Assembly (NCBI GenBank): GCA_030280995.1
Contig: JASXTE010000015.1
Span: 28,029,001-28,093,000 of the forward strand
Length of the DNA stretch: 64,000 nucleotides
Reading direction: 5' to 3'
DNA from: Hemileia vastatrix
Lineage: Eukaryota > Basidiomycota > Pucciniomycetes > Pucciniales > Zaghouaniaceae
In this document: in pieces, positions 15,819 to 59,994 of the stretch
Position numbering within the stretch: position 1 is the first letter of the stretch
Layout of the letters: each line of letters begins with the position of its first letter
The notes under the pieces: model-generated
What the model saw: only the letters and a program-made list of their open reading frames with translations
Databases searched by the model: none
What the model was told of the DNA's origin: nothing
Translations under genes and position numbers: made by a program

Positions 15819-15859
15819 CACCACAGAAAATTTGGAGGGGTATTGCTAGCAATACCCCT
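15819..15859 (+). repeat. Left terminal inverted repeat of the CACTA element
   Basis: CACCACAGAAAATTTGGA followed by a perfect 22-bp palindrome (15837-15858). It matches 59953-59994 in inverse orientation with three or four differences in the linker. Preceded by duplication AAT. Confidence 0.9.
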
Positions 15860-16717
15860 CATTTAAAAATGTTGGGAAGTGGCTGGAAAGCTGTTGGAAG
15901 GCTGTTGGGAGTTCATTGTGAAACCAGATTTAAATTAATTGGACAAAGATTTGGTAATCAGTTAGACCTAGGTTCAACCAAACTCAATCACAGGTTTCTT
16001 GGAGCTTGGTGATTACTTTGATTTTGAGCTGAGCACAGATTGAGCAAAGCTTGAACATATCACTTAACATATCATAATATTCACTTTCCCATCTTGTGGA
16101 AAGCAAAATTTGATATTCGTTCTAAGAATATCTACATATATTTTCTTGCCAAGTTGGTAACAGAAGGTTAAACTGTAGTATCTCAATTATTACACTAGAC
16201 TACATAGATATTTGATAAAACATACAATTCAAATCAATTTTAATATTATTGAGATCACCATAAGTGTCTGTCCAAAGACTTACAAAAAGTATGTTAGTAT
16301 CAAGACATCGTTCTAGGTAGTAGTTTCAATTTGGATTTTGAACTGACATCTAAAGCATTTTACTATTAGACAGAAACATAAATAAGTGTAATAAGAGTGA
16401 AATTATTCTATTTTGTGATTATAATGTAACAATAAAGCACATTTTTATTGAGAAAATTTTTCTTCCTCCACAAACCAAAATTTACTCTATAGGCTCAAGA
16501 TTTATTTTTAAGCCATATTATTCATTTCAGTTATCATTGATTTACTTCCAATATTTATTAAAAAGATAATAATAATACATGTGAAAGAATTATGAGCTTA
16601 GCATAGCATATGCTAAAAAGTTATTTTGTCGTTTTATTCAAAACTGATTCTTCATTTTTTGCTTCAATTCATCTTTTAACAACCACTATCTTCAGATACT
16701 ATTCTTACTTAATATGT
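15860..16717. other. Left subterminal region of the CACTA element
   Basis: No gene is seen. Short G/T-rich repeats (GTTGGGAAGTGGCTGG, CTGTTGGAAGGCTGTTGG) lie next to the end; the remainder is AT-rich leader before the SNF2 gene. Confidence 0.5.
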
Positions 16718-19142
16718 CATGTCTCAGATGTGTTGGACAGTTCTCAATAACAATCAATCAAATTTATATGAATGTAATTTCAAGATTTCAAAACTCACCG
16801 ACCCCCACGATTTTACAGTGAGGCCATTCGAATGTTCATATTTTTGGACTATTTGAAGAAAGAAAACCAACCCTTGTCGGTAATCTTTCTCAAGTTCAGA
16901 GTCAGCACATTGGACCACTATTGGGTGACATTGGCTCTGGATCTCACCATTTAAACCAAAGAAGTGCCTTGAATCCTATGAAGCCTTTCTATTTTCATGC
17001 TTACTTGGTTCCAGTTTTTGGTAATCAGTATCAACTTTGGGGATGCCTCTTTTCTTCAAGTACACTAATAAGTCTTGCTAAAGAAGCATTTTCTTCTGCA
17101 CAAATCGATTTATGTCCAATCCTGAACTACGACTCCACTATCTTTTTTAATATCCCACATGTAATTTTTGAAGGCTCTTTCCAAATATCTCAGAGTACTC
17201 AAGATTGGAAAGCTGATCAACTTATCCGAGGAATCAAAACAGTTCTCAAAACACATCAACTTCAAGCAATAAATTTTATGATTGACAATGAACGAATGTT
17301 AAAGGAAAAGTTGGATATCATGTGGAGGCACCAGGACAACCATTGGCTTAGAACTGGATTCAATGACTATAAAGATCAGTTTCTTAACAATCAATTAACG
17401 CCTGAAGGAAACGGGTCAATACTTGCTGATGATATGGTTTTGGGAAAGACAATTTCAACTCTTTCTCTTATAAGTGCAACTCAAGGTGAAGCAAGACAAT
17501 TCCAGGTATCAGAAAATCAAGAAGGTATTAATCGGAGTTCAGCCACACTGATTATATGCCCCCTGGAAACACTATCGAATTGGATCAATGAAATAAGTGT
17601 GCACTTTGAAGATAATGCGCTTCCTTTCAAGGTTCTTTATGGGAAGGATTGTCAAAATACTAATGTCAATGAGCTACAGGACACTGCTATTGTTTTAACT
17701 ACCTATGAAATAGCTAGCCCAACGATGTCAAAAAATCAAAGCCAAAAAAAGATACCGGTGACTCAAATGCTCTTTTGGTATAGAGTTGTTTTAGATGAAG
17801 CTCCGTTAGTGCCCATTTCTATATCTAAAACTTAAAACTTAATTTTTATAATCAATTTTTATAAATATTCTTTTAGTTACATTAAAAATCCTTACTCGCA
17901 GAGGGCTCAAACAATATTTGACTTGGAATCCCAACACCGACTATGCTTGACTGGAACTCCACTTCAGAACAGGCCCACTGACCTTCAAAGTCTCATATTT
18001 TTTCTTAGAATCGAAAAGTGGCAAGAAGACTGGTTATGGAAGAATTTCCTTTTTCCAGGTTTGCAAAAAGGAAAGGCTAATTCTATTAAATCAATCAATC
18101 ACTTAATGAAAGTCATAAGCCTACGTAGAACAAAGGATGAAATTTTGTCTCTTCCAAAAAAGATTCAAAGGGGGATATCGGTTCAATTAGCAGATCCATG
18201 GAGGTCTAAACTTGATGTGCTTCAAGAAGGATTCACTGAGCGATATGGGCCCTCCAGAAGCACTGACTTCCCTTGGGACTCATCTGAGTTTCTAAGAGAG
18301 CTGATGATTTTGAGAAAATTCTGCAACCATCCAATCTACAAAAATCTGGATGAAACTCCAACTTTTGATTTCACCTGGCAGCATTCCGCAAAGATTTGTC
18401 ATCTTATAGGCCACTTAAAAAACTTTTTGTCTGGTGAAAGGGATATAAATTTTCCAAAAGCTGTTATATTCTCCAACTTTGCAGACTTTTTGCAGATGTA
18501 AGTGATTCTATAATGAATTGTTTTACAAAATTGTGTTGGCTTATTAAAAACAATTTTCTAATATTTCAAAATAGAATAAAAATGGCTTTAGATGACCACA
18601 ATATTAGGTATACCCAGCTTACGGGTGAACTCAGCAGGACAAAGCGAGACAAAAATATGCATGAATTCCATTTTAATAAAAATTGCCAAGTTTTGGTTGG
18701 AACGATTCAGGCTGCAGGAGTGGGTATAGATCTCAGGTGTGCTCAAAATGTATATATAATGGTGAGCTCAATGTCTTTTATTTCATATTAAGAACAAAAA
18801 TATTAAATTTTTTATATGTTCAATGTTGAAATAGGAGCCAAATTGGAATCCAGCAGTTGAGCAACAGGCTGTTGATTGGCTGTATAGAATGGGGCAGCAA
18901 AATGAAGTAAATGTTTTGAATTATTTTGTACAAGGAAGTATAGAATTCAGCATGTATAAGATTCAAAGGAAAAAAATGGAGCTAACAATGTAAGCCAAAT
19001 TTCATTTCTATAAATTTTAATGATAATAGTAATCATTAAAATTATGTTTTTGTTTTCAAGGCTAAGTGTCCCAAACAGTGGAAATGAGGAGTATGAGTGT
19101 GCAAACCTATTATTAAGGGAGTTTTTCAATCACTCACATTAG
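16718..19142 (+). pseudogene. SNF2-family ATPase, HLTF/Rad5/Rad16-like, with altered key motifs
   Basis: Exons (inferred from GT-AG signals): about 16862-17804, 17877-18497, 18575-18761, 18835-18989, 19061-19142. Motifs in order: 'LKTHQLQAINFM'; Walker A as LADDMVLGKT (family: DxMGLGKT; Val codon 17437-17439); ICPLETLSNW; motif II LDEAP after splicing (family: DEAH); CLTGTPLQNRPTDL; RRTKDEIL; CNHP; KAVIFSNF; QAAGVGIDLRCAQNV; and motif VI QAVDWLYRMGQQ (family: D-R-x-H-R-x-G-Q). No RING finger is seen. Upstream, a weak HIRAN-like stretch from ATG 16730 is in a different frame and ends at a stop near 16852, so the N-terminus looks frameshifted; there is no in-frame ATG near 16921. Such ATPases remodel chromatin or DNA forks. 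Loss of Gly, His and one Arg in the ATPase motifs suggests an inactive product. The 3' end overlaps convergent gene X by 17 bp. Confidence 0.8.
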
Positions 19143-19569
19143 AGGAAGAAAGAATTTCAAGGAGAGCAGGTAAATTTATGGGATTTTGAGGATTTAAAAG
19201 TCTGAGTTGTTGAGGATTTAGAGATGCAAGATATAAGGGAGAATAACAGTCATTCGGCAAACCCCGGGGGACATGAGAAGGATTAAGGTTAGGGGATAAC
19301 GTTGAAACCAAACTGATTCTTTTGTACAAGGCCAAGTCCTTTAGCACACTTCCAGAGTAGGTTGAATTATCTCGAATATCAAAGTGTTGTTGGTCAAGAT
19401 ATTGTGCAACTTTAGAAAAATCTTCAGACCTCCATTGCATTAAGATACGTCTTAACGATCCATCATTATCAATTTTGGTGTCTGAACAACACTTGATTTT
19501 TGTGAAAAGGTTGTGATAAGTTTCACAATGTGGAAGTTGTTTAAGAAGTTTAGTTCGGTTAACTGAATT
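19126..19569 (-). pseudogene. Gene X, exon 2 (C-terminal part), separated by gypsy-B
   Basis: On the minus strand, a splice acceptor TCTTAG lies at about 19570-19575, then NSVNRTKLLKQLPHCETYHNLF and so on to SSSNVSD-stop at 19126. It resembles the C-terminal half of X-prime (43566-44006) by eye: KLLKQL/KLARDL; ILMQWRSEDFSKVAQYLDQQ/AIPGWRNPELNDLFKKMDKM; 'HVPRGLPNDCYSPLYLASL'/NVPKYLPKNCYSATFLQGL. Exon 1 is now 17 kb away at 36843-37433, because gypsy-B landed in the intron. It is convergent with the SNF2 gene. Function unknown; it may be the CACTA accessory (TnpA-like) protein. Confidence 0.7.
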
Positions 19570-19614: not shown

Positions 19615-20749
19615 TGTGGTAGCCTAAAGTTTAGTACGGCACCTAAGTACGTAAATGGAGTTATTACGGCGTGCAAGATTGGCGTTATTATTTTTTTATA
19701 TATAAAAGGGTTTTATTTAATTTATTTGAGTTTTAAATATGAAGAAATTGGTCACGAGCAAATGCCTACACAAAAACAATTTATTTTACGGAGAAAACTT
19801 ATTTTTACGGTCTGAAAAATTTATAAGTATCAAGTCAAGTCACTCAAGAACCTTGGGAAATTTTCCCAGAATTTTTACTATTTTTCTTATATTTTTAAAT
19901 GAATTTTGAAGTTTTATAGAAATATTTACGTTTTCAGAAATTACTTAACTTCGATGAATTTTCACGGGGTAATTAGAGCTGCGCAGACTACGAAAATTAG
20001 TTTGGTATGTAAAGGGGAAGTAGCTCTATTATGTTTAATTTTTCTAGATTTTTTATTATAGTTTTAAGGTTCTAATTGAGTCCGGAAGTCCGGACGGGCT
20101 CTGTTTCGACTCTGTACGGACTCCGTACGGACTCCGGACGGACTCCGTACGGGCTCCGGATTGACTCTGGAAGAGCTCTGGAGGGGAAAACTTAGGCACG
20201 TGACTAGGAATACTTAAGCGCTTCTCAAACTCGAAATTGAGGGGGGGGACACATCATACAGCTTAATCATTAACCACCAAGGTCTCATTTTTTATTACTC
20301 AACAAATTAAATAAGTTATAATACCCTTATAACATTTATTATTTTTACATAACATTTTAGAAATACAATTCAACAATTTAAATCACACTTCATATAGGGT
20401 ATCTTTAGAAAGGTCTTCATCGCTGGGACTTGATTATTGCTGTCTCATAAAAATTCAAATTATTATAAAAACATAAAAGTCAATCTTTACAGATCTTTCA
20501 CTGGTACACCTTAATTGTTGTTATCAGAATTTCTTTCTCAACAGCCACTTTCTTTTAATCTCAATAAGCGTTAAATATTTTAGAGTTTCATTATTTTCAT
20601 CAATCAGATCAAAGTAGATTGGTTAGCTTAGTGATTTAGAATTCCCATTTTGTTATTTTTATTGGAAGGACGGGGTTTTCGGCTAAATCCACATATCTCC
20701 TCCGGATTCTGCTTACAGCAAGGCGACTGTAAGAGTTTACCATACCATA
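19615..20749 (+). repeat. Gypsy-B 5' LTR
   Basis: 1,135 bp. It contains a cluster of overlapping CTCCGTACGGACTCCGGACGG-like decamer repeats (20090-20165), part of which is missing from the 3' LTR. No gene is seen inside. Confidence 0.92.
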
Positions 20750-20750
20750 G

Positions 20751-20774
20751 TTGGCGCCCAATGTGGGGTTTCGA
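20751..20774 (+). other. Primer binding site of gypsy-B
   Basis: TGGCGCCCAATGTGGGG begins 2 bp after the LTR. A TGGCGCC start is common for fungal gypsy primer sites, with the 3' CCA of a tRNA pairing to TGG. The tRNA is not identified. Confidence 0.7.
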
Positions 20775-20925
20775 ATTCTCTAGCTTTCTTTAAAGACTTA
20801 CTTGGATCAAGAACGTTATTAGCCTGCAAGAGGCTTATTCTTTGGAACTCTAATTGGATTTTTGTTATTGGCCTGCAAGAGGCTTGTTATTTTAACGGTT
20901 GTTAACGCTTTTCTTACGTTTTGGG

Positions 20926-22131
20926 ATGTCTTCTACTAGTGGAACTGCTGTGTTAGCTGCTGGTGTACCTTTTAGGGCATCAGTAAGGATTGTATCTTGG
21001 GTTGGGCCCAAGTTTTCTGGAGATGATTTAGAAGGATTTTTACATAGGTATGAAACTGCAGCTGCAATTGATGGTGCTTTACCTTTGGATATGGTGAAGC
21101 AGATTAGGTTCTTTATTTTGGACAGAGAGGTGGAAAAGGAGGTTATTTCTATGGATGGTTATAAAGATCAAGATTGAAGAAAGCTCAAGATGGAAATGGA
21201 AAAAAGGTGGCCAAAAGTTTATTCATTGGAGGATCTAAAGGATATAGCTAGGAAATGGGAATCAAAAGGTGGTGTAACATCTCTGCATCAGTATCATCAG
21301 TTTATGGTTGAATTTCAGGTGGTTCTGGATTATTTGTTGGAGTATGAAATTTTATTTCATGATAATGCATCAAAGTATATTTTTTGGGATGCTATGGGGG
21401 AAAAGGTTAAGAAAGATGTTTTGATGGTGCTTATTAATGCGAATTTAATGAAGGATTGCCCAGATGGAGAAACTAGGATTCCTGGTATGGAGGTGCTAAA
21501 GAAGGTTATTTTGGAACATCTGGATACTCATAATTCTGTTGATTTGGACTCTGGAGAAGACACTGAGGTCGCTCAAGAGATAGAAGAGGATAGTGTAAAA
21601 GAACTAGTTACTGATGAAATTTCGGATTCAGCCATTCCTGAAGATTTTGTCCAGCCTGAAGATATTATTTTTGTTGACTCTTCTGTTTGGAAAGAAGAGG
21701 TTTCTGAAGATGAAGATATTATTGTCACTGATGAAGAAAATTTGGATGTTGGGGATAATTTTGTTTTGGATAATTTGGAATTTGATTTAGAGGAATATTT
21801 ACCTCAGGTTTTGTCTTCAAAAGCGGAGACTGTCTTCAATTCAGATGTGGATATGGTTTATGAATCTGGTATATGTATGGTGGATTTGTTTCAATCTCAG
21901 GAAGAGATTTTTATGGAGGATATGGTTTTTCCTGCACTAATAGAGATTGTAGTGCCATTGGACAATAGGGTGCATAAAGTGGATGCACTCATATTTTGGA
22001 AAAAGGTAGTTTATTTTTTATGTCCTTTTATAGGACAAATTCTGGGAATTTATTTTTGGGTTTTATGGAATCGGTGGATAAGCCCTTGGGGCAAAATTAT
22101 GGATTATCTCCAGGGGATATCAAGAATTTAA
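20926..22131 (+). pseudogene. Gypsy-B gag, one nonsense codon
   Basis: It starts at ATG 20926 (MSSTSGTAVLAAGVPF). The capsid-like block (FSGDDLEGFLHRYETAAAIDG, MVKQIRFFILDREVEKEV) matches gypsy-A gag. At 21175-21177 TGA replaces the Trp codon of gypsy-A (SDYKKKDWKLL against GYKDQD-stop). The frame then continues through an acidic region to 22131. No CCHC knuckle and no protease are visible, both of which are present in gypsy-A gag, so the C-terminal half appears lost or replaced. Gag normally forms the particle that packages element RNA. Confidence 0.8.
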
Positions 22132-22187
22132 TTCCTCCGAAATGAGGATAAACTACCTAAACTCGGCTGAAATTTTTTTTTATCGTT

Positions 22188-23290
22188 ATGTCTTCAATTT
22201 ATTCAGGATTCAAATTATTATGGATGCCCTCATTTTTTGGGGTAGCAGGGGCTGATCACTCTAATGTTGTAATCTCTCCTCAGGATGAGATCCCGGATTG
22301 CAATAGGTCAGCTGACTTGGAGATAATTCAAGTGGATTCTCAATTATTTTCTGTTAATATTACTTTGGAGTGCAAATATGTTATGGACTTTTCTATATGT
22401 TTATTGGATTTACCCGGTTTTTCTATTAAATTTAAAAACGGTGAAAAAGGCAAAATGGGCCAAATTAGGTTGGATAAAAATTGGAAGGGTATGTTTGATT
22501 GCCTCCAGCAAGAGGTTAAACTGCAATTATCTCCTTCTATTTTGGACCTCCAGCAAGAGGGTAAACTGCAATTATCTCATCAAAACCCAATAAAAAATCT
22601 CAGTATAATTAAAACACAAAAAAATAATTTTTGTGAAAATTCAATTCCAGTCCTCCAGCAAGAGGTTAAACTGCCGACTTTCTTTACAGGTGATTTAATG
22701 TTGGATAAGGGAAGCAAAGGTGTTGGAAAATCTGTTTATAAATTAGACGGGGGAAAGGAGAAAAGGGTAAAATTTAAAAATGAAATAAAATATTTTTCTA
22801 ATTTTTCTTTTTCTGATTCTGGCGATGAAGAAGATTCATTTGATGAAAGTTTTAATGGCGATACAAAAGAAAATGTTTTACCTGAAGTTAATTTAGATGT
22901 GGACGCAGCCAAATATAAGAAAGTAGCAAATAAAGTTCGACCTATTAATGAACCGCTACCTGCTGAATTAAATCCACCTTTGAGAAGACCAAGGTTATCA
23001 AGAGATCCTTATGAAAGTCCCTTGGTAAAGAATCCGCCTGAATTTTCTGAGACGTCAAGAATCACTTTTGAGAGACTGGGTGTTGTTAATTTTGGACCTG
23101 ATGGTTGGTTTTCTGGAGAAGAGAAGAAGTTGTTGTTGGATGTGATGGTCAAGCGAGAGAAGGCCATTGCTTTTGTAGAAGAGGAGAGGGGTGTGTTGAA
23201 GCATTCCTATGGGGAGCCTTACAAGATTCCTGTGGTATGTCATGAACCGTGGCAGCAGAAACCGACTCCTATTCCGGCTGCATTGAAAGA
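22188..23290 (+). pseudogene. Gypsy-B linker frame upstream of RT, cut by the copia element
   Basis: It begins MSSIYSGFKLLWMPSF and includes ADHSNVVISPQDEIPDCNRSADLEI, matched by gypsy-A minus strand 60140-59998. Three LQQE[VG]KL repeats come from in-frame copies of CCTCCAGCAAGAGG plus TTAAACTG (22502, 22547, 22652). The C-terminal block KVANKVRPINEPLP ... FGPDGWFSGEEKKLLL leads toward RT. At 23290 the copia LTR begins, and translation would run on into the LTR-encoded tail to 23768. The intact pre-insertion frame resumes at 28549 (AYIEVVREPIHTGLYEQSTSSY). Confidence 0.8.
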
Positions 23291-23872
23291 TGTTAATATT
23301 ATTTCAGCAAATATAGCATGTGTCCCCTCAATATCTCACAATCACAAATTATCCAACAATACGCAATATTGCATTACTAACAACTCACACTGGACACCTC
23401 AACAAGATGAAGAACGAGTAAGAAGAATAAGTACAATAATAGATAAAAAGGCAAAGACAATTAGGTGGCATTGGAAAGTAAAAGAGAAACATTGTGCATT
23501 AAGAAAAGGCATCAAGTATCGTAATAAGAGAAAAGATAACACACAAAGTAATAATAATGTTCAACATAACATTTTTATATTCAAAAGTAATAAGAGAGGT
23601 CATAAGAGAAAGGCGTGTGATATTGGAAAAGCAAAAGTTAAAAGGATAAAAGGTGATACTCAATCATGGGATTGTGAAAGCATAAAAGCTATTTGTACAC
23701 TTCTAAAATGTTGTAAGAGAAGTGCTTTTGGGTATCATACACACTTTAATGAAAACAGGTATAAATAAGGATGTAACTGTTGTAGTCCGTCATTAGAATA
23801 TTTTTGTATATAAATTTATTTAAGTATATTTAATTGAAATATTAATTGTAAAAGGTTTACATCATTTTAATA
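23291..23872 (+). repeat. Copia 5' LTR, with protein-coding frame
   Basis: 582 bp. One frame is open from base 1 to the TAA at 23766-23768. It is Lys/Arg-rich (IIDKKAKTIRWHWKVKEKH ... KRRGHKRK-like), the same frame that tails the copia polyprotein in the 3' LTR. Downstream, CATTATCAGTACC (23873 on) is the probable primer-site region. Confidence 0.9.
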
Positions 23873-23939
23873 CATTATCAGTACCAACATACTGAAAAAA
23901 TCTTATATCGCTCCTTTTAAAAATCAGAATCTAGTCAAA

Positions 23940-26900
23940 ATGTCAGAACCAACCAATAACACCAGTAACAACCCTCGATGCTTGCTTAATGAAAATAACT
24001 ACTTTATTTGGTCTACCATCATGGAGGCCGAACTAGTCAATGTAAATTGTCTCGATTACATTAGCGGCAAAGAATGCGATAAAATAGAAGAAAGGAAACG
24101 AAAATCTTACAATCTTATTGTTCAAAGTCTAAACAATGACCATGTTGCAATAATTGCTAGCGAGTTATATGGAGAGAATAAAGGCGACGGACTAAAAGCA
24201 TGGGAACTACTGAAAGGAAAATATGCTGGCGGCAATGCCCAAGGACGCCGATCTGCATTCAATGAATTATTAGCAATTGAATTCACCAATACAGAGCAGT
24301 TCCTTAGAGAGGTAAGAAGGGTTAATAGCAAAATAAAACTTACTGGTCTTAAAATCAATAATGAAGTACTATCCCTTCAAGTACTCCACAAACTACCGAA
24401 GGAATTCGAATCGTTAATCAGAGTAATCATGCAAGGGGAAGATATTTTAGGGCTAGAAGAAATTTTGAAGAAACTTGAGAAAGACAGTAAACAGTTCGCC
24501 ATTAAAAAGGAGGACAATGTTGCCATGACCACGGCAATCAATCAGAAGAAAAATATAAAATGTTACAACTGTGGAATTATGGGTCACTCAGCTCGAGAAT
24601 GTAGAAAACCCTGGTCGAAGTACAAATTTGCTCCCCCAAGAAATGCGACAACTTCAGAAGCTAAAGAAGAAGAAAAGGAAAGTAAAAGTGTTGCATTTAT
24701 GGGAAAAAGAATTATTGAGATCAGTGATGATGAAGAACAAGTTAACAAGAAACTTACAGTCGACTGGGAGAAAGAAATCTTCGATGATAGCGATGAAGAG
24801 TTCTTGTATGGTGACACAATCAATGAAGACAACGAGGGAGAGTCTTTTGTCAGTATCAAAATATCTACATATGTAGGCATTCTTGAAGCTAACATATGTC
24901 TCAACACCAGTAATGAACTATTATTAGACTCTGGAGCATCAGATCATATGTGGAATCGAAAAGATGATTTCGTGAAAATCCAGGAGTGTAGAGGGATTGT
25001 AAATATCGGAGAGGTTGGTAGGAGTGTAAATATTAGAGGAAAGGGAGAAGTAGTGTTATATAGCCCAAGTGATGAAAAGATAATATTCAAAAATGTATAC
25101 TATGTCCCAGATCTACCATATTGCCTCGTTTCACAAGTCTTGCTATGGGAGAAAGGTGCCCAAATCATAAAAGGAAAAGAAAAAAACTTTGAGGTAACCA
25201 TCAATAATAAAACAGTAATGAGAGGAGAAATCAGAAATCGCTTACCATTCTTGAACCTTGAAAGAAGACATGCCCAAGCTCATAATGCCCTAAAAGAACA
25301 TAAAAGACTCGGACATCCGGGAGATGGAATCAGTTGTGAGACATGCAAGCTCGGAAAAATGACAAGAAAACCGTTTAAGAAAATAAGAGAAAGGACAATT
25401 GTGCCTGGTGAAGAAATTTCTGTAGATTTAATGGGACCGATAACACCCATATCATTAGGAAAATCGAGATTTGCTTTAACTATTGTAGACACAGCTACAG
25501 GCTACGTCTGGATTAGAGCCCTCAAACATAAGGGAAAAACTGAGAAAGAGATAAGAGGTGTCATACAACTAATAAAGAGACAAAAAGATTACAACGTAAA
25601 AAGAATAATAAGTAATGGAGGAGGAGAATTTATCAGCAATGAATTTAAAGACTGGCTACAAGAACAGGGAATAAACCATATAGTAACTACACCAAATACA
25701 CCGCAAAATAATGGAATAGCGGAAAGAATGAATAGGACCATCATAGAAAAGTCAAGAACCTTAATACTAGAACACAATTTACCAAAAAAATTATGGGCAG
25801 AAGCCATGATTACGGCAGCAACTTTATATAACAAAACCAGTAAGAGAGAGCCGTTTAAAAACTTTTGGAAAAAAGATCCTCAAACAGAAAACCTCAAGGA
25901 GTTCGGTAAAGACATATTATATAGTATCCATCATTATCAGAAAATCGGCAAACTGGATCCTAGATGCAAGAAGGGCATATTAGTAGGAATGGATGAAAAC
26001 GAAGCAAACACTTACCGCGTTTGGGACAAAGAGAAAGGAAATATTATCAGGACAAGAGACATATTTGAGATCGAGAAAGAAGTCCCACAAATAAACGAAA
26101 TGAACATTAGTGCAATCACACCAGTAACTGAAGAGACAAAAGAAGCAGAAGTAGAAGAACAAACTAATAACGAAGAAATTCAAGATGAAGGTACAAGAAA
26201 ATCAAAAAGGAATAAAAAAGAACCAGAAAGATATGGCAATCTAAAAACATACACAACTGAGAAAATAAAAGAAGATAATGAAGAAGAAGTGAATCTTGAA
26301 GCCTTCATGATGGAAACATTCATACGAGAAAACGTTATAACACCAAATAGTTATCAAGAAGCTAATAAATCCAAAGAATGGATCTTATGGAAGAAGGCCA
26401 TATTTGAAGAATTCAATTCAATCATAGAAAATGGGGTATTTGAAATAATACCAAGAAACAAAAAAGACAAGGAGAAAACAATAATCACAACCAGGTGGGT
26501 CTTGAATAAAAAGTTTGACACTAATGGAGAGTTGCAAAGGTATAAGGCCAGATGTGTAGCAAGAGGCTTCAAACAAAAAGAAGGAATCGACTTTGAGGAA
26601 ACATTCTCCCCAACAGGAAGACTTAGTACTATGAGATTCATTCTTAATTATGCGGTAGCAACAAAACAACAACCGAGACAAGCAGATTTTGTAACAGCAT
26701 ATTTAAATGCAAAATTAGAGGAAGAGGAAGCAGTTTACATTGAAATACCAGATGGTTTTCGAGAGTGGATACAAGAAACTAAACAGGAAACATATAATGA
26801 TAAAAACAAGGAACATTTAGTTGAACACCCGGAGAATTTTGTAATAAAATTAAAGAAAACATTATATGGGCTTAAACAGGCAGCGAGAGGGTGGTATTTA

Positions 26901-47191: not shown

Positions 47192-49622
47192 ATGTCTAGT
47201 ATACAAAATCCTACACCTCCACTTTGTATGTATATCATGTTCCTCTCTCTTAATTTATATATTTCACTTATGTTCTATATCTTTTTTTTTCAAAAATTTG
47301 ATTTTCCAGAACCCAAATGTGTTTCATCCCACTCTCTGATTGATACTCGCTTTGAAGCTTTTGAGCTTGCACCATGTCTGCCACATGGCATGGCACCTAA
47401 CCCTCCTGTACTTAGCAATGAGAGGCAGGAAATAACAAGAGTTCAGTATCGCAATTTACTTGAATTGGCTAGAGATAAAACAGAAGAGCTTGTCAAGATC
47501 CTTAACAATAATCCTTCTCCTTCATATTTATCTAACCCTTGTAATGACTTACTCCAATATGTGAAAAGCCTTGAAAAATGTATGTTCATCACCTTTATTT
47601 TCTCCTTTTAAATTAGTAGAGAAGATTATTAATATTTTTTTTTCTTCATATATATTTGTAGCTTATGAGGAGGGTATGATTCCTCCTGATGAAGTCATTG
47701 TCATTAGGGATGATGATGAGACAGATGAACCATCAGCTTCAACTCATGCTTCAACTTCTAAGGAAAATCTTGAAACACCTGTTATCCGCTCCAAGAAAAA
47801 GAGATTATCCCAAGGCTCCTCTTTTGTTCGACATATTAAACCGGCTTCTGCTAATGAATTTTCTGATGTATCAAATAATAAATCTCAAAAAAAAAGCAAA
47901 GGTTTTGATAATGAGTATATTCTTGTTTCCTTTTTTTTTTACTGTTATTCTTTTATCTTTAAAATTCAATCATATATCTCTTTTATTGCTTACATATTGT
48001 ACTTTTTATCTTTCTTTTGATATTTTGTACCAGAAACTCACCTGCTGTAGATTGTTCCATTCATAAACGCCCTCTCCCTGATGAAGATGATGAAAAGAGA
48101 AATGAAAATAGCGATGATCAACTGTCAGAATATGAAGCTATGCTTGTTCATCAAAAAAAGCAAAGTTTAAAATCTTCTTCAAGACATGTTGATATGTTTG
48201 ATAAAGATGATGATTCAAACAGCTCATCACCAAATTCCTTCATTTCTAAGAAGCAATACCCATCACCTCCTAAATTACCTACTTTGACTTCTTTGAAAGC
48301 TTCTCTACCAATGAAATCAACTCCAATCAAGATATCGAAAAAACCTCTAACTTATTCACCCTCAGTTCTAAAAGAATCTGATTTGCAGGAGGAATTCTGT
48401 AAAATTCATAATTTTTATAAAGGTAGAATCAGCACGGCAAAGGTCCTCAGGTCGTGGTTGGAAATTGTTACTCTCCTCGAATTACGCTCTTCTACTTCTT
48501 CCCAAGAACCCATGTCAAATATACCAATGTTTACTTTTCATTGGGAAAAATCTTGTGGAGAAGATTGGCTTTCAAAACTTACTGAGTTATGTAAGTTACC
48601 ATAATTTTTAGTCTTGACTTTTGTTCTTTTACTTATTTTTTTTTCCTTTTGTAGAAAATATTTTTTTAGAGATTGATAGCTCACAGCTATGGGTACTCGA
48701 TAATATTGATTTCAAAAAAATGGAAGATTTATGTGATCCTGATGGTTTAAATACTGAAATTCTTTCCTCAACAAAGAAAACGGATCACCCTGAATCCAAT
48801 CTTATCCGAATGCTCATGAGATTAATGATCCCAAGTGACCACTGCCGTTCTTCATGGGTATCTCTTATATCATCTTCACTTTATCTGACCGCACATGAAT
48901 TCAGCCAGCTTCCATCACATCAAAACATTAACTCAGATTGTCCAATTGAACGTGGTCTTCAGCTTCTAGCTCACCTTTCAAATCTGAAGAGTCCGATTTC
49001 TGATGGCTTAGAAGTTGGTCCCACTGCACTTCAAACCTGTGATATATCAATGTCAACTCTTCTTCAAATCAGCAATATTATCATTGATATAATTATGTCA
49101 ATTATCATTCTTAAATCAAAATATTGTGCTGCAACAATATCAGGTGGCAAGACTAGTGAAGCTCAACAATCAAGTGAGAAAAACGAAAATACTGAACTGA
49201 CTATAATGAGAGAGAAACAAAAGGCTGCACTAAACAAAATAAATTCTGAATACTCCCACCACCGATATCAATCTTTCACATTCTATATAATTGATGGTGT
49301 CCGTGGTTTATTTCTGAGCTCTCAAGATCATAGATTGGCTTCAGCAGCTGATTGCTTGGAGGTAATATCAGAAGTTAAGTTTCTTAATTTACATGAAAAA
49401 AAAAATCATTTGATGGAAGAAATAATTTGGAAAAATTTAAATAACTATATTTTAACATTAATAAAACCTTTTATAGGCAAGTGTGATCCATTTCCTTTAA
49501 AATTTGATACCCCAAGTCCTCCGGGAATTGCTAGGGCTATTTCTGCAGATTTTCTTAATCACTGGGGCTCCATTCAGCCAGTATCACCTTTTTTTGCTAA
49601 ACATAGCCTTTCAATAAATTAA
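47192..49622 (+). CDS. Gene Y, unrecognised multi-exon cargo gene
   Basis: Coding-looking exons: from about 47192 or 47311 to 47579, 47662-47914, 48034 to about 48591, and 48655-49622. Introns 47580-47661 and 47915-48033 join in frame. Content: 'SHSLIDTRFEAFELAPCLPHGMAPNPP'-type start, an acidic Ser-rich middle (VIVIRDDDETDEPSASTHAS), Lys-rich patches, then a folded-looking C-terminal half (FTFHWEKSCGEDWLSKL; RMLMRLMIPSDHCRSSWVSLISSSLYL). Two other GT-AG pairs (47228-47310 and 48592-48654) would each create a TAA at the junction, so either other sites are used or the gene is decaying. I know no family for it. It is convergent with the TET/JBP gene 0.8 kb away. It might be a nuclear protein from composition, but this is not shown. 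Confidence 0.55.
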
Positions 49623-50421: not shown

Positions 50422-51640
50422 TTATATATCTAGATTTTTTAGATTTGTCTTAACATTAGATAAATAATACTTTGCTGATTCTATTTCTTCCTCTATTAAG
50501 TCATCTCTTTTCAAAAAAACTCTCAAAGCACTAATCAAATATTCTAACCTAAATTTTTCTTTTTTAATTTCTAAGTATTCTGAAATATCAATATCAAAAA
50601 CATTAAGCTTTTCTATAGCATGAAAAAGTCTAGTGCTGATTTGAATAGAAGAACCTATCATAGTGAAGCCAGGAATTTCATGACATCTTGAGGTAAAATG
50701 CCTTAGTTGATTGGCAGGCCATAATGTCACTGTTATTCCATTAGTTGCTTCAAAGTTGATTTTACTTCGAATTTCGGGAAACATAAGTTCTCCACCTATT
50801 TGTCGTGGTTGGGTCTTATCATACTTCATATGAATGGTGTTTTTTTCTGTATCTTTAGGAAAAAATATTCCTAAAGTATACTCACTTGCATCCTTATCGA
50901 GATGAACCTCATTAGAGAACCCATTACCATTCCCTCCAGATGTCCAAGTTAAATTACTAGCAAACGGTACACCCTCTTCTTCACTAGAAACTTTTGAAAA
51001 TCCAGGAATACCAAGTTTTGCGCAAAGATTAGTTGCCTCATTGTACTTTACATATGATATTTTTTTAAAAAAATATTCAAAGTACATTGCAATCCTCTTC
51101 ATTCGTTTTTTATATTCATCCGTTTTTACAATATCATCAGTGTATTCATCTGCAAGGAAAAGCATTCAAAAATTCAGTATTTAAATTAAAAAAAGTGATA
51201 CTTACAAATATGTAAAGATTTCTTTCTATCTAAAATAAAGCCACCACCAAACATTTTTCCAAAACCACCAGCTCTTTGATGATAACCATTATTTTTAATT
51301 TCATGTTCGCAGTAAGAAAGATCCTTAATGCATTGCACCGTAGCTTCTAACATATCTAGTTCTTTGAGCTCATGAATTTCAAAAGTCTGCACAAGAACAT
51401 TAGGTATTAAGACACCTTTTGGTTTATAAATACTACATCCAGGAAAAAAATTGTAATAATTATTGCAATCTGTCATATTATTTGCATAAGATCGTGCATA
51501 GAAATGTGGCTTCTTCCCGTTTGTATCCATTCCAAGAGCGTTTACAAGTTTCATTCCAGTAGCAATGTCTTTCGCCCACCTATTGTTAGAGTTCTTCCCT
51601 GGCCGTTTTTTTTTTCAAATTGTTACTCATTGATGTTTCA
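50422..51640 (-). CDS. TET/JBP-like 2-oxoglutarate/Fe(II) dioxygenase
   Basis: Exons run from about 51640 to 51210 and 51153 to 50422 on the minus strand, joined by a 56-bp intron (GTAAGT ... TTGCAG). The core has NGFSNEVHLDKDASEYTLGIFF with the H-x-D iron ligands (about 50904-50896), GGELMFPEIRSKINFEATNGITVTLWPANQLRHFTS with the distal His (about 50699), and the following Arg as candidate 2-oxoglutarate anchor. This G-G-x-[LF]-x-F-P and His pattern is that of fungal TET/JBP proteins. That family oxidises 5-methylcytosine or thymine in DNA and is known to be expanded on DNA transposons of basidiomycetes (Iyer and colleagues). At the N-terminus ATGAGTAACAATTTG and an A10 run are out of frame with the downstream RPGKNSNNRWAKDIATG by one base. 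An ATG at 51554 could serve instead. Catalytic residues look intact. Confidence 0.82.
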
Positions 51641-53356: not shown

Positions 53357-53975
53357 GCAGCCAGATTTATACTGGCTGCTTTTTAGAAACCTTAATTTAT
53401 GACCCAAGCCTTTGAAATTGGCTTGGGTCCCTTACATTGCAATTTAGTACTTCCAGCCAGGGGAAACCTGGCTGGAAGTGTCTCTTTCAAGCAATCGAAG
53501 TCGCTAAAAGCGACTTCGATTGCTTGCTGTAATGTTTGCCACCCTCCCAGCTAATTTACTAGGCTGGGAGGTGGCCAAAGCAGTGTGCAACGCGCGTTGC
53601 TGCTGCAAGTAACGCGCGTTGCACAATCGCTACCATATTTCATGCAGCTGATATCAAGTCAGCTGCATGAGATATGCGCAGCATGTGCAATGCGCGCTGC
53701 ATGCAACAGCAATGCAGGCTGCATGTGCTGCATGCAACGCGCATTTCTGCTGCATGCAATGCGCATTACTTGCAGCAGCGATGCGTGTTGCATGTGCTGC
53801 ATGCAGTGCATTGCACAGCCAGTTTTTTTCTGGCTGTGCCATGCACACAGAGAAACCAAAGTCCCTGCAAGGGACTTTGGTCTCTAAAATGGAAGCGACT
53901 TTCCCTACCAGGTGCAATCTGGTGGGAAAGTGAGAGAAACGTTAGACTGAAGTTGTTTGAAAGAAACTTCGGTCT
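53357..53975. repeat. Array of about twelve different perfect or near-perfect hairpins
   Basis: Stems differ in sequence and follow one another: 53357-53379 (8 bp), 53401-53429 (10), 53449-53479 (13), 53488-53526 (18-bp stem, 3-base loop), 53537-53577 (about 13), 53585-53624 (14), 53641-53669 (11), a complex TGCATGCA-rich fold 53675-53812, 53813-53839 (10), 53849-53885 (about 15), 53898-53931 (13, one mismatch), 53944-53975 (11, with pairable G-T). The stretch is much more GC-rich than its surroundings. Overlapping open frames on both strands are by-products of TGC repeats. Confidence 0.93.
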
Positions 53976-56263
53976 TAAAAACATTAAAAATCATAAAAAA
54001 AAATGAGAAATGTAGAAAAAAAATTAAAAATTAAAAATTAAAATGTGAGTATAAGAAAAAAAATAAGTGCTAGTGATACCAAAAATCCAAGCCAATTTCA
54101 TTTGTCTTGGTTATTTAATAATTATTTTTTAATACATTAAATTTAAAATTCAAACACCATAAAATATATGAATTTTTTTTATATGAATATTATAAATTTA
54201 ATCTACCTCTTTCTCATAATTATATTTATAATTTTGTTTTTTTAATTTTTGACATTTAAGCTTATTTTTTGGAAATACAAAATTAAATTTTCAACTAAAT
54301 TTTTTAGTAAGGTAAAATAAATTATAAATTTGACATTTTGTAATTGAATAATGAAAAAAATTTTAAATTTATTTAAAAAATATTTTTGTTAGAAGAATAC
54401 AAATATTTTAAGGGTAGAAATATGGTGCAAATTGTAAGTAAAAAAAATATAATTTTTTTGTGAGGGGTTATTTCTATTTTTAAAAATATTTTTCAAAAAC
54501 ATTCATTAAATACTGAATTAAATTACTTTGAAACTAAAATTTTTTGTTAAATAATTAAAAATGAAATAATAATATTGTTGTATTTGATATAAAATTTGAA
54601 TTTGTAATATTAATGTCTCTTTAAGTAAATTTGAAAATCATTTAAAAAGACCATGTTGATAAGTACTTCATTTTTGATATACAATGGTTATATATATATC
54701 TTATATATATTTCTTGAGTGTTATTTTTATATACATTCAATAAAATTTGTAATATAAAATGCCATTTAATAATTAATTAATGTTCAACTTAGTTATAACA
54801 ACTTCATATTTAATACCAGCCACTAGTATTTACTTTTTAATTTAAAACTCCAATATAATATGAGAGTATCCTTATTTTGTCTGTATGTAATGAACAACAA
54901 TAACAGACCATAAATGAGTGGGTAATTAATTACAATAAATAGTTGAAGAATAACCTATAAGAAATGATAAGTTTATCAAAAAGAGTACATTAAAAAAATA
55001 TACTTTTGAATTTTTTTTGATATAATTTGGGTAGTTAAATGAAAATTTAAATTATCAGACATCAAAATGGATAAAATCTAAAAGTAGTGTTTATATAATA
55101 AGCCTCATATAAAAAAAGGATAAAAAATCTACTATGTAACTGAATTATTAAATATTAAGGTATTATTAAAATTATTGAAAAACTTATTTTACAGTTATAA
55201 TGAAATCTAAATGTGAAAATAATGGTGGGATAATAGTAAGACTATGTGGAAACACTTTAATTTATACATACTTTCAACTATGTTCAGATAAAAAAATTGT
55301 TAAAATTGTATAATAACATCTAGTTAATAGTGATGCAATTTTATTTAGATCAAGAATAAATTTTTCTGAGGAAAAACTAATTAAATTGAGATATGGCCAT
55401 CTCCTTTCAAGAGATAGAATAATAATAAAAATTTAAAAAATTATAATAAGTATTCTTAATCACCATTTTTGAAAAGTCTCTAGTAAAATTCATTATAATA
55501 TATCATTCATTGATTACATTATATGGAGTTTCATCTTGAAGTAGTGATGTGCAGCTTTGAACTTATGTTATGGAAAACAAAAAAGTTAAAAAATATATAG
55601 TTATACTAATGAAAAAGCCAAAAATAAAAATACTATTATAAATTAAAAAAATAAAACTACATAAATTTTATTCTGCTCTAATGATGGAAGGGTACTATGT
55701 ATGAATTTCCACATGTTAAATCCAAACCTGCTTTAAGGCTAGTTTACAGGTAGAGCTATTAAGTTTCCTTAAATTCTAAAAATAACTTATGCATTTTACT
55801 AATTATTTTTTTCTTGTTTTCTTTCCAAAGTTGTTAGAGTTGCTTAATTAATACTGTTATCTTGATTGTAAGATATATAATTTTTTTTGAATACATGATT
55901 TATTGTTTCAAAAATTATATTATAAATTTAAATCATTTATTTCATTTTCTAAAGCTTCATTGTCAAGGACACAACTCCATTTTCTATTACTTAACAAATA
56001 TATAAAATGTGATAGTAAAATTTGAGGAATTTTCTTTTTGAGAGGGTCAAACTATATTGTGAAGATTTTTATCTAGAAATTCTTGTACTCTAAAACCAAA
56101 TAATTTTCTCCCTTAAGTAAGCCATTTCAAAAATATGAGAATATAAACAAGAATATTAACTTATCTTATTTTAATTTTCTTTACTGAAAGTTTTAGTTCA
56201 ATCCCTTTTTTTATATGACATTAGTATAAAAACATGGTTAAATGCTACTATATAATTAATTTT

Positions 56264-56306
<43 letters not shown>

Positions 56307-58016
56307 TTAGAAGGTCATCCTTTTTTATTTACTTCAATAAATGGCTCAATTATAATACCCAACACTTATTAATGTTTCCCAAACTCAATAACAAATTTCT
56401 CATATGAAATATTAGCTTCTAATATAAGAAGTTTATCTATAGATGATATTCAACATGTGATTTTACTTTTTAGATTCAGCTAAAATTAAACAAAAGGAGA
56501 AATTATGCATATGTGTATAAATGGTAACCATATGTTACTTAGAGGATTGTGAAATTCACTCATCAGAATGGTTTAAGTATTAAAATAAATTGAGGTCATT
56601 ATTTTCTAGTATTTGAAACTAATTAGGAAATTATTCTAAAAATATATTTTAATGTGTATCATGTTTAAAAAGTTGGAAATATGATTTTTGAAAATTGTGA
56701 GTTTCTTATGAGATACCAAACTTTAGTTTACATTGTTTCAAGTAGAATAGAATTTTAGTATTAGAAATTGAAAGCAATGTACCATTATCAGATTTTAACT
56801 GTGTTCTACTTATAGAATGATTACATAACATTAAACATTATTTAAATCAAAAAGGTTTAAAAGATATTTAGAATTTTACCAAATTTCACCATTTATTAAT
56901 CTTTGATTTGAAAACAAACTATGATGTACACTCACTAGAAATAAGCAATCCCAATTTTAACATAATTTATAAATCCAAAAATAATGAGTCAATTAACATG
57001 AAAATATATATTATTTCAAAACCAATTCTCTAGATTTAAAATATGATGCTTTAATGAAAAATTATTACAAAACTTTAATGCAATGAAGTCTCTTAAAAAA
57101 TTCAAAAATAGAATATCAAAACAAGTAATTTCTGCAAAAAAAACTACTAACTATTGTAGATAAAGCATAAAAATAAGTCATATTTTTTAAAAAAATGATC
57201 TAACAATATTTATTTTTGTTAAAAAAATCAAAACATTGTTAAGTTTGCTTGTTATAATAATGTTAAAATCCACTAAACATTATCTAAAGGTGGTAAAATA
57301 TGTTAAAAATAAGTTGAATTTTATGAGATAAAAATCAACAATTTTGTATCATTTCCTGTTTTGCTATGACTTTATTCCACCCTTTTTATCTGATTCTTCC
57401 AGTATTTCTTTGCTATGATCACTAGTTTTCAAGTTAAAATTTACAAATGTTCATTATACTTGATAATATGAAAAATAACTCAAACTTTTATAACTACAAA
57501 ATAAGATTTTGTAACTCCTTCTTTCAATCAATATTTGAAGAAATTTTTAGTTTATTTGAGTAATGATTTTAAGAATAACAAAAAATTTGAAATTCACAAG
57601 GAATTATTTCCAGAGACTATAATTATTTACTTGTGTAATGCATGAGCTACTTATCAATGATGTAAAACATCAGAAAAGTAAGTTATAGTTATAAATCTAC
57701 AGATTATACTGTTTCTGGTATATATATCTTCAATAAATCTTTTAAACTTATCTTAGCCTACACACCACACAATAGAAAATCATTATATTAAAAAAGGAAA
57801 AAATTCTATGATAATATCATAAAGAATGATAACCATGGATTAATATTCCATAAAAATGGTTAATAATATTTTAAGAGAACCTAAATCAGTATTCTTTCAT
57901 CAAAATATATCCTTTTTTGTCTTTGTAATTTATTCCAAACAAATTTTTTGAAAGTTGAATCTATATATCTAATGCCAAAACCACTATTAAGTTCCCTCTT
58001 AGACTTTTTAAGAAAT

Positions 58017-58049
<33 letters not shown>

Positions 58050-59952
58050 TATTTATCAAAAATTGAAATAAAGAATAAAAACATAATTTTATTTACCTTT
58101 AATTATTTAAATATAGAGTATTTTCAGAATGCATTGTGGTTACTTGTGAAGGTTAGAAGATTTGAAGTTGGATTTATGAGTTTTTAGAAGGGCAAATATT
58201 GTAAAATTCTTTCACAAATATTTATTTCATAGTTTCAAATGTTGAAATCTACAAACTAATGGGATTTAAAATTATATTGAGATTTAAAATCTGTTTTCTA
58301 CTCAAGTAAAATAAAATAAAATGATGATATCAAAATTGAAATTAAGTTTTAACTTTTGATATGCTCTATCTTCAATTTTATTGATAGTGCATCAAAAATT
58401 TAATAATATTTTTTTCCTTCATCACTTTTTACATAAAAGATAGTTTTATCATTTTATGAATTAAAGATTGCTTATATAAATTTAACATCTATGTCAACTG
58501 TTTATGACTATTAATCTATATAATAAATTTTTTAGAAGAAAAAATAACATCAGTATATACTGACTTTGAAATTATTCAATTTAAAATAGTTTACAGGTAG
58601 ATAATGAAGGGTGATTTCATTTTTGAATATGAATTATAGAAGTCTTATTTTGTCAATTTTAATTCTTTTTGAGCTCAAATGTATCCACTGCAACTTATGT
58701 AAGAATAAAAATTATTTTTATTGAAATTTACATGAGAAAGTATGCCTATTATTCAAAATCAAACTTGCTCTAATGGTGTTTTTCAATCATTATTTCCATT
58801 CATAACAATAAAAAATATTTCAATTTGCTGATGTTTTAGTTTTTGATATCCACAAGTTTATATCTCAGGTGTACTATTCACAAAATTATTAAAAATATAA
58901 TTTTCGAAATACATGATAAACTTGAAAGTGAGGGGGCATTAAATTTTTAAAAATGAATTCTAAATTCAGGATGGATAGTATTTTTTCTATTTTCACAAAT
59001 GAACAATTTTTTGTTTCAATTAATCCAGAAAGAAAATTTTGTTGTAAGCATATTATATTATATTTATTATGATTTTAAATACTATATTTTCAAGATTTGT
59101 GTTTAATATTTCCTGTGAAAGTTAATGTTAATGTGAATTTAAAGTAAGCTTGAAGAAATTTAATTAATAGGCATATTGGATATTTAAAATAATATTTTGC
59201 TCCAATCTTGAATCATCCTGGGCTAAAAAATATTTCAAATAAGGTTTTTGTGGGTCAATTTGGATTTAAGTAGGATTAAGTGAGGTTTAATAAAGGACAG
59301 ATAAAAGGCTAAATTCATTACTAGTGACTTTTTTCTCAAAATAGTTATAAAATATGTATCATTCTGGAATCAAGCTTCAATAAAGTTGAATTGAAACAGA
59401 GATAATTTCTAGCAGCCTAACACCATATTTACAAAGGTGTAAAATACCTCAAATATTACTCATAATATAGGAAGGCAAGGAATCTACAAAATTCACATTT
59501 CAAATGAGGATTTATATTTTGAATTTGAAATTGAGAAATGGAATACTATTTTCCAATTTAAATATCTATTAGTCATTTTACCAAAATTTTTCAGTAATCA
59601 GATTGAATTTTGATGGTATTTTGTTGTAGATTAATCATTTTGATGAGACATTTACTCAAAATTACTGGTTTCGTTTCTAATATTCCATGTGAAATTCATT
59701 ACGAATCTTTTTGAAAGTGAATAGTTGACATATTGGATATGCAAAAGCTTATGTTAGATCAAAGTGAGATCAAAGGGAGTTCAACTGATGATCAAATTAG
59801 GATTTTACAAGATCAAACGGTGATCAATGTAGGTTCATCTTGAGCTCAATTTGTGACAAATCTCTGACTAAATGTAAGGCCAAACAATTTCCTACATGGT
59901 GATGATGTGTGCATAATTCAAGAATAGATTTGTGGCTCAACGGAGTTCAAGC
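53976..59952. other. Right arm of the CACTA element, six kilobases without genes
   Basis: Strongly AT-rich, with no credible gene on either strand. Contains (AT)n runs at about 56268-56300 and 58017-58049. The last few hundred bases have several GATCAAA words (59755-59830). No obvious copies of the 44-kb-region palindrome or of the left subterminal repeats were seen. Confidence 0.7.
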
Positions 59953-59994
59953 AAGGGGTATTGCTAGCAATACCCCCCCATTTTTTCTGTGGTG
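59953..59994 (-). repeat. Right terminal inverted repeat of the CACTA element
   Basis: Reads inward on the minus strand from 59994: CACCACAGAAAAAATGGG, then the 22-bp palindrome (about 59955-59976). Followed outside by AAT 59995-59997 and gypsy-A coding sequence. Confidence 0.9.

What the first reader, a model, noticed from the sequence alone, without database searches (positions are those of the whole stretch)
15819..59994. A giant CACTA-type transposon with precise ends
Inverted ends beginning CACCACAGAAAA, a 22-bp palindrome beside each, and a 3-bp AAT duplication bracket 44 kb (27 kb without a later retrotransposon). The outer flanks are the two halves of one gypsy element, so the boundaries are checked twice. 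A Tnp2 gene lies inside. CACTA elements of this size with a six-gene load are unusual in fungi; I know of no description of this one.
Basis: partly seen in the sequence, partly recalled or inferred. Interest (0 to 1): 0.93.

Follow-up and report, generated by a model that had tools for sequence, protein, structure and literature searches.

The report
Giant DNA transposon with demethylation genes
A 27,000-letter jumping gene, with about two thousand exact ends in this fungal genome (likely the coffee leaf rust), carries a likely DNA-demethylating enzyme and a likely chromatin-remodelling helicase whose sequences show signs of having been kept by selection while it spread, which would let it escape silencing.

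Summary
The ends (15819, 59994), the 22-bp palindromes, the AAT duplication, Tnp2, SNF2 and a TET/JBP-like gene are all there. The flanks are one gypsy element: 7 of 7 other gypsy copies examined run straight through the insertion point.

In the whole assembly (748 Mb; size statistics fit Hemileia vastatrix Race I) the full end motif occurs 1015 + 1008 times against 0 + 0 for the control. Of 100 ends listed, all on one contig, 76 form 38 facing pairs, 22 of them 26.5-27.5 kb long. All 17 copies checked, the window included, have perfect 3-bp duplications. Six copies read in full keep the window's order; the closest two differ at 0.16% of sites.

Substitutions private to one copy look neutral (omega 1.1-1.2). 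Substitutions shared between copies show constraint in SNF2 (0.47) and TET (0.45). In 5 of 6 copies CpG transitions run ten or more times other C/G transitions, as expected if inserted copies are methylated.

The kind is known: Kojima (2025) described TET+ EnSpm elements in rusts. For the size, the SNF2 gene, the palindromic ends, the copy number and the selection signal I found no account. Demethylation and chromatin opening remain inferred.

The parts
15816..15818 (.). target-site duplication AAT, left
   Evidence: single AAT at the empty site in 7 of 7 other gypsy-A copies
15819..15858 (+). left terminal inverted repeat (CACCACAGAAAA...), 'L' type end
   Evidence: 37/40 identical to the right end; genome-wide motif
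15835..15860 (.). 26-bp perfect palindrome inside the left end
16648..19010 (+). SNF2-family helicase gene (SNF2-rel_dom and Helicase_C); limits approximate; the window copy has a stop codon just before 16822
   Evidence: Pfam 2e-25 and 8.9e-23; Helicase_C 4.9e-9 in copy c20443; shared substitutions 30N/20S versus private 126N/34S
19126..19569 (-). orfA, 3' exon (unknown family)
   Evidence: the other half lies beyond gypsy-B
36837..37439 (-). orfA, 5' exon, separated from the rest by the gypsy-B insertion
38788..41133 (+). Tnp2 transposase, main exon (781 aa); putative zinc-finger exon just upstream (~38560) and C-terminal exon 41368-41886 not proven
   Evidence: PF02992 4.5e-13, 49.3 bits against a cut-off of 28.6; relatives up to 40% identical; D240, D336, C355-C358
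42277..44006 (+). orfB, distant paralogue of orfA (C-terminal parts 25% identical, E 2e-6; other parts only E 0.002); frame shifted in the window copy by a 16-bp tandem duplication
44225..46155 (.). array of 18 near-copies of the palindrome AATTTCGATCGAAATT (3 mismatches allowed), spaced mostly 85-86 and 101-104 bp
   Evidence: 17-19 sites per element in 6 of 6 copies
47177..49622 (+). orf47, unknown multi-exon gene
   Evidence: no Pfam match for the frames scanned
50422..51615 (-). TET/JBP-like 2OG-Fe(II) dioxygenase gene; exon 51615-51206, intron 51205-51150, exon 51149-50422 (predicted splice); HxD, H and R residues present; N-terminal start unresolved (poly-A run of variable length)
   Evidence: PF20515 7.8e-24; splice; residues in copies; shared 22N/15S versus private 94N/24S; poly-A run
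53401..53990 (.). array of distinct perfect hairpins
   Evidence: 8 found versus 0.085 expected in 53201-54050; RNA fold z -19 on 20 shuffles
53970..58905 (.). 4,935 bp without a single CpG (right arm)
   Evidence: long CpG-free stretches in other copies
59955..59994 (-). right terminal inverted repeat with 22-bp palindrome (59955-59976), 'R' type end
59995..59997 (.). target-site duplication AAT, right
19615..36814 (+). gypsy-B LTR retrotransposon, later insertion (4-bp duplication ACGG; LTR K2P 0.009); not part of the transposon
   Evidence: absent at this site in 6 of 6 copies
23291..28543 (+). copia inside gypsy-B (5-bp duplication AAAGA; LTR K2P 0.0017)
6737..15818 (-). gypsy-A, pol-side half (target of the insertion)
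59998..63736 (-). gypsy-A, protease-side half

Best explanation
It is a 27-kb CACTA/EnSpm-type DNA transposon with about two thousand exact ends in this genome, which likely moves by cut-and-paste with its own Tnp2 transposase and carries a predicted TET/JBP dioxygenase and a predicted SNF2 helicase that show a purifying-selection signal, likely because they would undo methylation and closed chromatin on the element. Shown: exact ends, 3-bp duplications in 17 of 17 copies, empty sites, a multi-copy family of one gene order, near-identical recent copies, near-neutral decay of single copies but constraint on changes shared between copies, and excess CpG decay in 5 of 6 inserted copies. Inferred: Tnp2 cuts at the CAC ends with a 3-bp stagger, using the terminal palindromes and perhaps the internal palindrome array as binding sites; TET oxidises 5-methylcytosine on element DNA; SNF2 opens its chromatin; lineages that keep these genes working go on jumping, helping broken copies in trans; number rises because excised copies are restored or re-replicated.
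For: Ends and window duplication. End motif 1015 + 1008, control 0 + 0; bare 12-mer 1484 + 1494, control 56 + 42. Of the first 100 end matches listed (all contig C2), 38 facing pairs under 60 kb; 36 of 38 join one L-type and one R-type end; 22 of 38 are 26.5-27.5 kb. 3-bp duplications: 6 of 6 full copies, 10 of 10 further pairs, plus the window. 7 of 7 empty gypsy-A sites. Six copies 95.5-99.0% identical to the window in long aligned pieces; pairwise 0.16-4.1%. Gene content. Selection, 17 copies: SNF2 shared 30N/20S (omega 0.47), private 126N/34S (1.16), p 0.015; TET 22N/15S (0.45), 94N/24S (1.19), p 0.018; together p 0.0006; without CpG sites 31N/19S against 194N/43S, p 0.004. SNF2: 15 of 17 copies without indel, and all nine stop sites private. 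Six copies, six genes: shared 49N/33S, private 411N/116S, p 0.0008; without Tnp2 p 0.005. CpG transitions 10 to 31 times other C/G transitions in 5 of 6 copies.
Against: No movement, expression, methylation or enzyme activity was or could be observed. Shared substitutions include some recurrent ones. Restricted to the two tree-consistent splits the six-copy test is 34N/19S, p 0.053 against neutrality and 0.027 against private changes. Without CpG sites the shared class of each gene alone is not significantly below neutrality: SNF2 15N/9S p 0.15, TET 16N/10S p 0.10. TET has stops in 6 of 17 copies and, outside a poly-A run, exon indels in 4 of 17; one stop (CGA to TGA at a CpG) is found in three copies, which are no closer to each other than to others, so recurrence is likelier than descent but descent is not excluded. 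The poly-A run near the TET start varies from 9 to 12 in 14 copies measured, so the true start is open. The youngest pair includes a copy (c15393) with a stop in SNF2. orfB shows no constraint in shared changes (11N/2S). All copies but the window's come from one contig. The third catalytic acid of Tnp2 is unsettled: E649 is matched by Q in 2 of 3 relatives that plainly cover it. The Tnp2 model was poor (pLDDT 49). The TET search of the own genome did not complete. The sixth copy, c20443, with only 12 changes, has no CpG change.
Confidence: 0.8

Rival explanations
1. A genuine high-copy CACTA transposon in which TET and SNF2 are passengers with no role in spreading; the apparent constraint comes from recurrent mutation and small numbers.
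For: Two-split test only p 0.053; non-CpG shared classes not significant alone; orfB unconstrained; stops in SNF2 in 5 of 17 copies and in TET in 6 of 17, one TET stop in three copies.
Against: Both genes separately and together show fewer amino-acid changes among shared than private substitutions (p 0.015, 0.018, 0.0006; without CpG p 0.004); private changes fit neutrality, so the method is not biased towards constraint; the genes keep their place and order in 6 of 6 copies.
Confidence: 0.2
2. The ~27-kb copies are non-autonomous or dead, mobilised by Tnp2 from another element with the same ends; the internal Tnp2 is not the active one.
For: Many copies have stops in Tnp2 (4 of 6); active-site changes in the two oldest copies; a third acid not settled.
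Against: Copies c15393 and c20443, the closest pair (0.16%), have the whole 781-aa Tnp2 frame and the checked residues; shared Tnp2 substitutions 10N/7S against private 108N/28S.
Confidence: 0.12
3. A segmental or tandem-duplicated chromosomal block rather than a transposon.
For: None found; high identity over 27 kb alone would fit.
Against: Different flanks and perfect 3-bp duplications in 17 of 17 copies, empty sites, both orientations (20 LR and 16 RL pairs of 38).
Confidence: 0.01

Closest known systems
TET+ EnSpm families of rust fungi (three families of Puccinia striiformis and relatives; Kojima 2025, PMC12730594; parts 1-4 of 7 of the text, figure legends and passages seen, no figures or supplements)
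   Same: EnSpm/CACTA-type transposase, termini CAC..GTG, 3-bp duplications, TET/JBP dioxygenase gene, rust host
   Different: The main text has no SNF2 and no Hemileia; I saw no palindromic ends, lengths or copy numbers in the parts read; its argument for function is that frames are mostly not disrupted, not a substitution test.
Large CACTA/EnSpm elements of the red alga Chondrus crispus, 16-20 kb with 4-5 ORFs (passage in PMC6431247)
   Same: Superfamily, enlarged form with several ORFs
   Different: Here 27 kb, six genes, TET and SNF2; ends read CACCA, not CACTA; a palindrome where plant CACTA elements have subterminal repeat arrays (the latter recalled)
KDZ (Kyakuja-Dileera-Zisupton) and Plavaka transposons with TET/JBP genes
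   Same: Fungal DNA transposons that carry TET/JBP genes
   Different: Other transposases and other duplications or ends (8 bp Zisupton, 7 bp Kyakuja; Plavaka ends TGT..ACA or CATCA..TGATG), as given in PMC12730594
Starships
   Same: Giant, cargo-carrying fungal DNA elements; eight of 42-606 kb were also reported in a basidiomycete, Tremella fuciformis (PMC13066641, passages)
   Different: Starships use a tyrosine-recombinase captain (start of the abstract of PMC12134995 in the listing; passages of PMC13066641); no such domain appeared in the reading frames scanned here

Membership tests
EnSpm/CACTA superfamily | termini 5'-CAC..GTG-3' as terminal inverted repeats | tested here: met
   the literal pentamer is CACCA, not CACTA
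EnSpm/CACTA superfamily | 3-bp target-site duplication | tested here: met
   17 of 17 copies examined
EnSpm/CACTA superfamily | Tnp2-type transposase | tested here: met
   PF02992 4.5e-13, above cut-off; nine relatives, 8 of 9 bearing PF02992
EnSpm/CACTA superfamily | DDE triad with C(2)C and H(3-4)H motifs | tested here: inconclusive
   D240, D336 and C355xxC358 conserved in the rows covering them; H429 and H439 invariant; third acid (E649) matched by Q in P0002 and P0009
EnSpm/CACTA superfamily | excision and reinsertion by its own transposase | not testable with these tools
   needs an activity assay or polymorphic insertions between isolates
TET+ EnSpm of rust fungi | TET/JBP dioxygenase gene inside the element | tested here: met
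   PF20515 7.8e-24, HxD..H..R present; inside the ends in 6 of 6 full copies
TET+ EnSpm of rust fungi | PU-type TET | tested here: inconclusive
   HxD (not HxE) argues against the PE type; PU versus AG not tested, reference sequences not available
TET+ EnSpm of rust fungi | host in Pucciniales | tested here: inconclusive
Starship | tyrosine-recombinase captain | tested here: not met
   none among the frames scanned with Pfam; Tnp2 and 3-bp duplications instead; no dedicated captain model was run
KDZ | KDZ transposase and 7-8 bp duplications | tested here: not met
   3-bp duplications in 17 of 17; PF02992 transposase

The most novel reading that the evidence does not exclude
A giant DNA transposon whose chromatin-opening genes (TET dioxygenase plus SNF2 helicase) are selected parts of its own propagation machinery: the element carries what it needs to erase host methylation and remodel chromatin on itself, and by this reached hundreds of 27-kb copies, about 2-3% of a 748-Mb rust genome.
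Probability: 0.5. Interest if true: 0.88.

Novelty: new variant of a known kind. Interest (0 to 1): 0.77.

Why it matters
Whether transposon-borne TET genes do anything for the transposon is an open question in fungal epigenetics; the recent survey argues it from mostly intact reading frames. A family with about two thousand exact ends, nearly identical copies, and intact and broken versions side by side in one genome is a natural experiment: the substitution contrast already points to selection on TET and SNF2, and methylation calls from ordinary long reads could test it copy by copy. It also shows a cut-and-paste type element staying at 27 kb and at very high copy number, outside the Starships.

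Tried and rejected
Tnp2 relatives in the large protein set: nine hits, best 39% identical over 66% of the query, one named (Earliella scabrosa). TET and orfB: no hit, so relatives of these genes elsewhere are unknown. Viral contigs for Tnp2 and for the palindrome: nothing. Rfam and tRNA scans of the window: nothing. Tnp2 structure: pLDDT 49, so no fold search. TET against solved structures: no real match. Considered and dropped: Starship, KDZ, segmental duplication (see tables). A claim that the element avoids methylation was dropped: inserted copies show strong CpG decay. Number of TET or Tnp2 families in the genome: not obtained.
Full report
What was checked. The finding claims a CACTA-type element at 15819-59994 with precise ends. 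Both ends read CACCACAGAAAA, are 37/40 identical, enclose the same perfect 22-bp palindrome and are bracketed by AAT. The element is 44,176 bp; a gypsy-type retrotransposon (gypsy-B, 19615-36814, duplication ACGG) with a copia inside it (23291-28543, duplication AAAGA) accounts for 17,204 bp with its duplication, leaving 26,972 bp.

The nest. The outside is one gypsy element (gypsy-A, LTRs 6737-7827 and 62646-63736). LTR divergence (K2P) is 0.0465 for gypsy-A, 0.0092 for gypsy-B and 0.0017 for the copia, the order that nesting demands, with the transposon between the first two. CpG observed/expected follows the same order: 0.06-0.13 gypsy-A, 0.34-0.52 in the transposon's coding parts, 0.56 gypsy-B, 0.61 copia; the transposon's right arm (54250-59994, 0.07) breaks the order. 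Seven of seven other gypsy-A copies fetched (of 40 scored matches, 1583 candidates) run uninterrupted across the insertion point with one AAT; in the two with gaps the gaps lie beyond the join.

A family, not a single case. In the assembly that holds the window (747,610,610 bases, 791 contigs) the bare 12-base end occurs 1484 + 1494 times (control 56 + 42), and the end with its palindrome 1015 + 1008 times (control 0 + 0). Only the first 100 places are listed, all on contig C2. They contain 38 facing pairs within 60 kb; 36 of these join an L-type (TTT after the 12-mer) to an R-type (AAT or AAC) end as I classed them, one is RR and one joins L to an unclassed end; 22 are 26.5-27.5 kb, 9 are 27.5-31 kb, 7 longer; 24 of the 100 ends are unpaired. 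If C2 is typical, 38 pairs per 100 ends scales to some 770 two-ended copies, about 21 Mb or 2.8% of the genome; this is an extrapolation.

Copies read. Six copies of 26.9-27.2 kb were read in full: all have perfect 3-bp duplications (AAA, ATA, TGT, AAG, TAT, TCT), all keep the window's order apart from indels, none has gypsy-B at the window's site. One of them (c16431) has lost the first half of orfB and part of the hairpin array and right arm and gained about 3.6 kb. Pairwise divergence is 0.16% to 4.1%. Ten further pairs were read at their ends only: 10 of 10 perfect duplications; their SNF2 and TET stretches were read later.

Host. Total length (747,610,610 here, 747,980,110 published), contig number (791, 794), contig C2 (35,997,290; published N50 35,997,362) and a contig reaching at least 71,389,470 (published largest 71,415,227) nearly equal the published values for Hemileia vastatrix Race I (PMC10652848, part 1 of 2 read, that is all but the end of the reference list).

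Genes. SNF2 helicase (SNF2-rel_dom, Helicase_C), orfA and orfB (distant paralogues of unknown kind), Tnp2 (PF02992), orf47 (unknown), TET-like dioxygenase (PF20515). The window's copy is damaged: a stop early in SNF2 that copy c20443 lacks, a 16-bp tandem duplication in orfB, orfA divided by gypsy-B. A poly-A run near the start of the TET frame is 9 to 12 long in the 14 of 17 copies where it could be measured, so the start of the protein is open. The checked residues (Tnp2 D240, D336, C355, C358, H429, H431, E649; TET H, D, H, R) are all kept in the four younger of six copies; c4799 has lost D240, and c1655 has lost E649 and the TET D.

Selection. In a transposon each inserted copy decays freely, so changes seen in one copy should be neutral, and changes shared between copies, which passed through active ancestors, should be constrained if the gene matters. 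That is the pattern. Seventeen copies: SNF2 shared 30N/20S against private 126N/34S (p 0.015), TET 22N/15S against 94N/24S (p 0.018), together 52/35 against 220/58 (p 0.0006); without CpG sites 31/19 against 194/43 (p 0.004). SNF2 has no indel in 15 of 17 copies and its nine stop sites, in 5 of 17 copies, are all private. Six copies, all genes: 49/33 against 411/116 (p 0.0008), without Tnp2 p 0.005. Weak points: recurrent changes inflate the shared class; the two tree-consistent splits alone give p 0.053 (neutrality) and 0.027 (against private); without CpG sites the shared class of each gene alone is not significantly below neutrality; orfB goes the other way (11N/2S shared); TET has stops in 6 of 17 copies and exon indels outside the poly-A run in 4 of 17, and one stop, at a CpG, occurs in three copies. 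Those three are no nearer to each other (1.1-1.4%) than to c20443 (0.7-1.2%), so recurrence is the likelier reading.

Methylation. In 5 of 6 copies transitions at CpG sites are 10 to 31 times as frequent as at other C or G sites (oldest copy 0.154 against 0.0154); the sixth, c20443, has 12 changes and none at a CpG. This is the usual mark of methylated CpG, so the element appears to be a target of the very modification that TET enzymes oxidise. It shows that inserted copies are not protected for long; it does not show what TET does at the time of movement.

How it most likely works. Tnp2 cuts at the CAC ends with 3-bp stagger (inferred from ends and duplications). TET removes methylation and SNF2 opens chromatin on the element (predicted from families and from selection). 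The terminal palindromes and the array of 18 internal palindromes are candidate protein-binding sites (inference).

What is known. Kojima 2025 (PMC12730594; parts 1-4 of 7, figure legends and passages seen) reports TET+ EnSpm families in rusts with CAC..GTG ends and 3-bp duplications. Corre et al. 2025 (PMC12210899; [quoted passage not shown] its text does not mention Hemileia, EnSpm or JBP. PMC6431247 (passages) mentions 16-20 kb CACTA elements in a red alga. Searches for a description of this family. Of the papers holding both Hemileia vastatrix and CACTA, five were listed; four have titles on coffee plants and were not opened; the fifth, a review (PMC6679389, passages), names CACTA only in a list of superfamilies. 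The library holds no bioRxiv preprints and few subscription papers. Hence: a new variant of a known kind.

Noticed in passing
53401-53990, and same place in copies: Array of unrelated perfect hairpins (8 versus 0.085 expected). Between copies hairpin loops are found inverted (GGAAA/TTTCC in the window; CTTGATA/TATCAAG in c4799) and in c1655 both arms of one hairpin change in matched pairs, as if hairpins form in the DNA and are copied or recombined.
   Followed up: partly
53970-58905: 4,935 bp inside the element without one CpG, at about 20-25% GC; CpG-free stretches of 2.2 kb or more in all six other copies (4,722 bp in c23843), so it predates this insertion.
   Followed up: partly
44225-46155: 18 near-copies of the palindrome AATTTCGATCGAAATT, mostly 85-86 and 101-104 bp apart, 17-19 per element in 6 of 6 copies; only one other site in the window.
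   Followed up: partly
about 51610 (-), near the TET start: Poly-A run of 9 to 12 in the 14 copies measured; its length decides whether an upstream ATG is in frame.
   Followed up: partly
35024-35461 (-): Antisense frame with part of a Zn2Cys6 binuclear cluster (PF00172, 1.3e-4) inside gypsy-B between pol and the 3' LTR.
   Followed up: no
35723-36055: 3' LTR of gypsy-B has a 166-bp tandem duplication not seen in the 5' LTR.
   Followed up: no
4232-5296: Inverted LTR-like fragment 77-82% identical to the gypsy-A LTRs, next to gypsy-A.
   Followed up: no
genome G000: About 950 more bare 12-base ends than ends with the palindrome (2978 against 2023; chance about 100), so decayed or related families with other subterminal sequence likely exist.
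   Followed up: no
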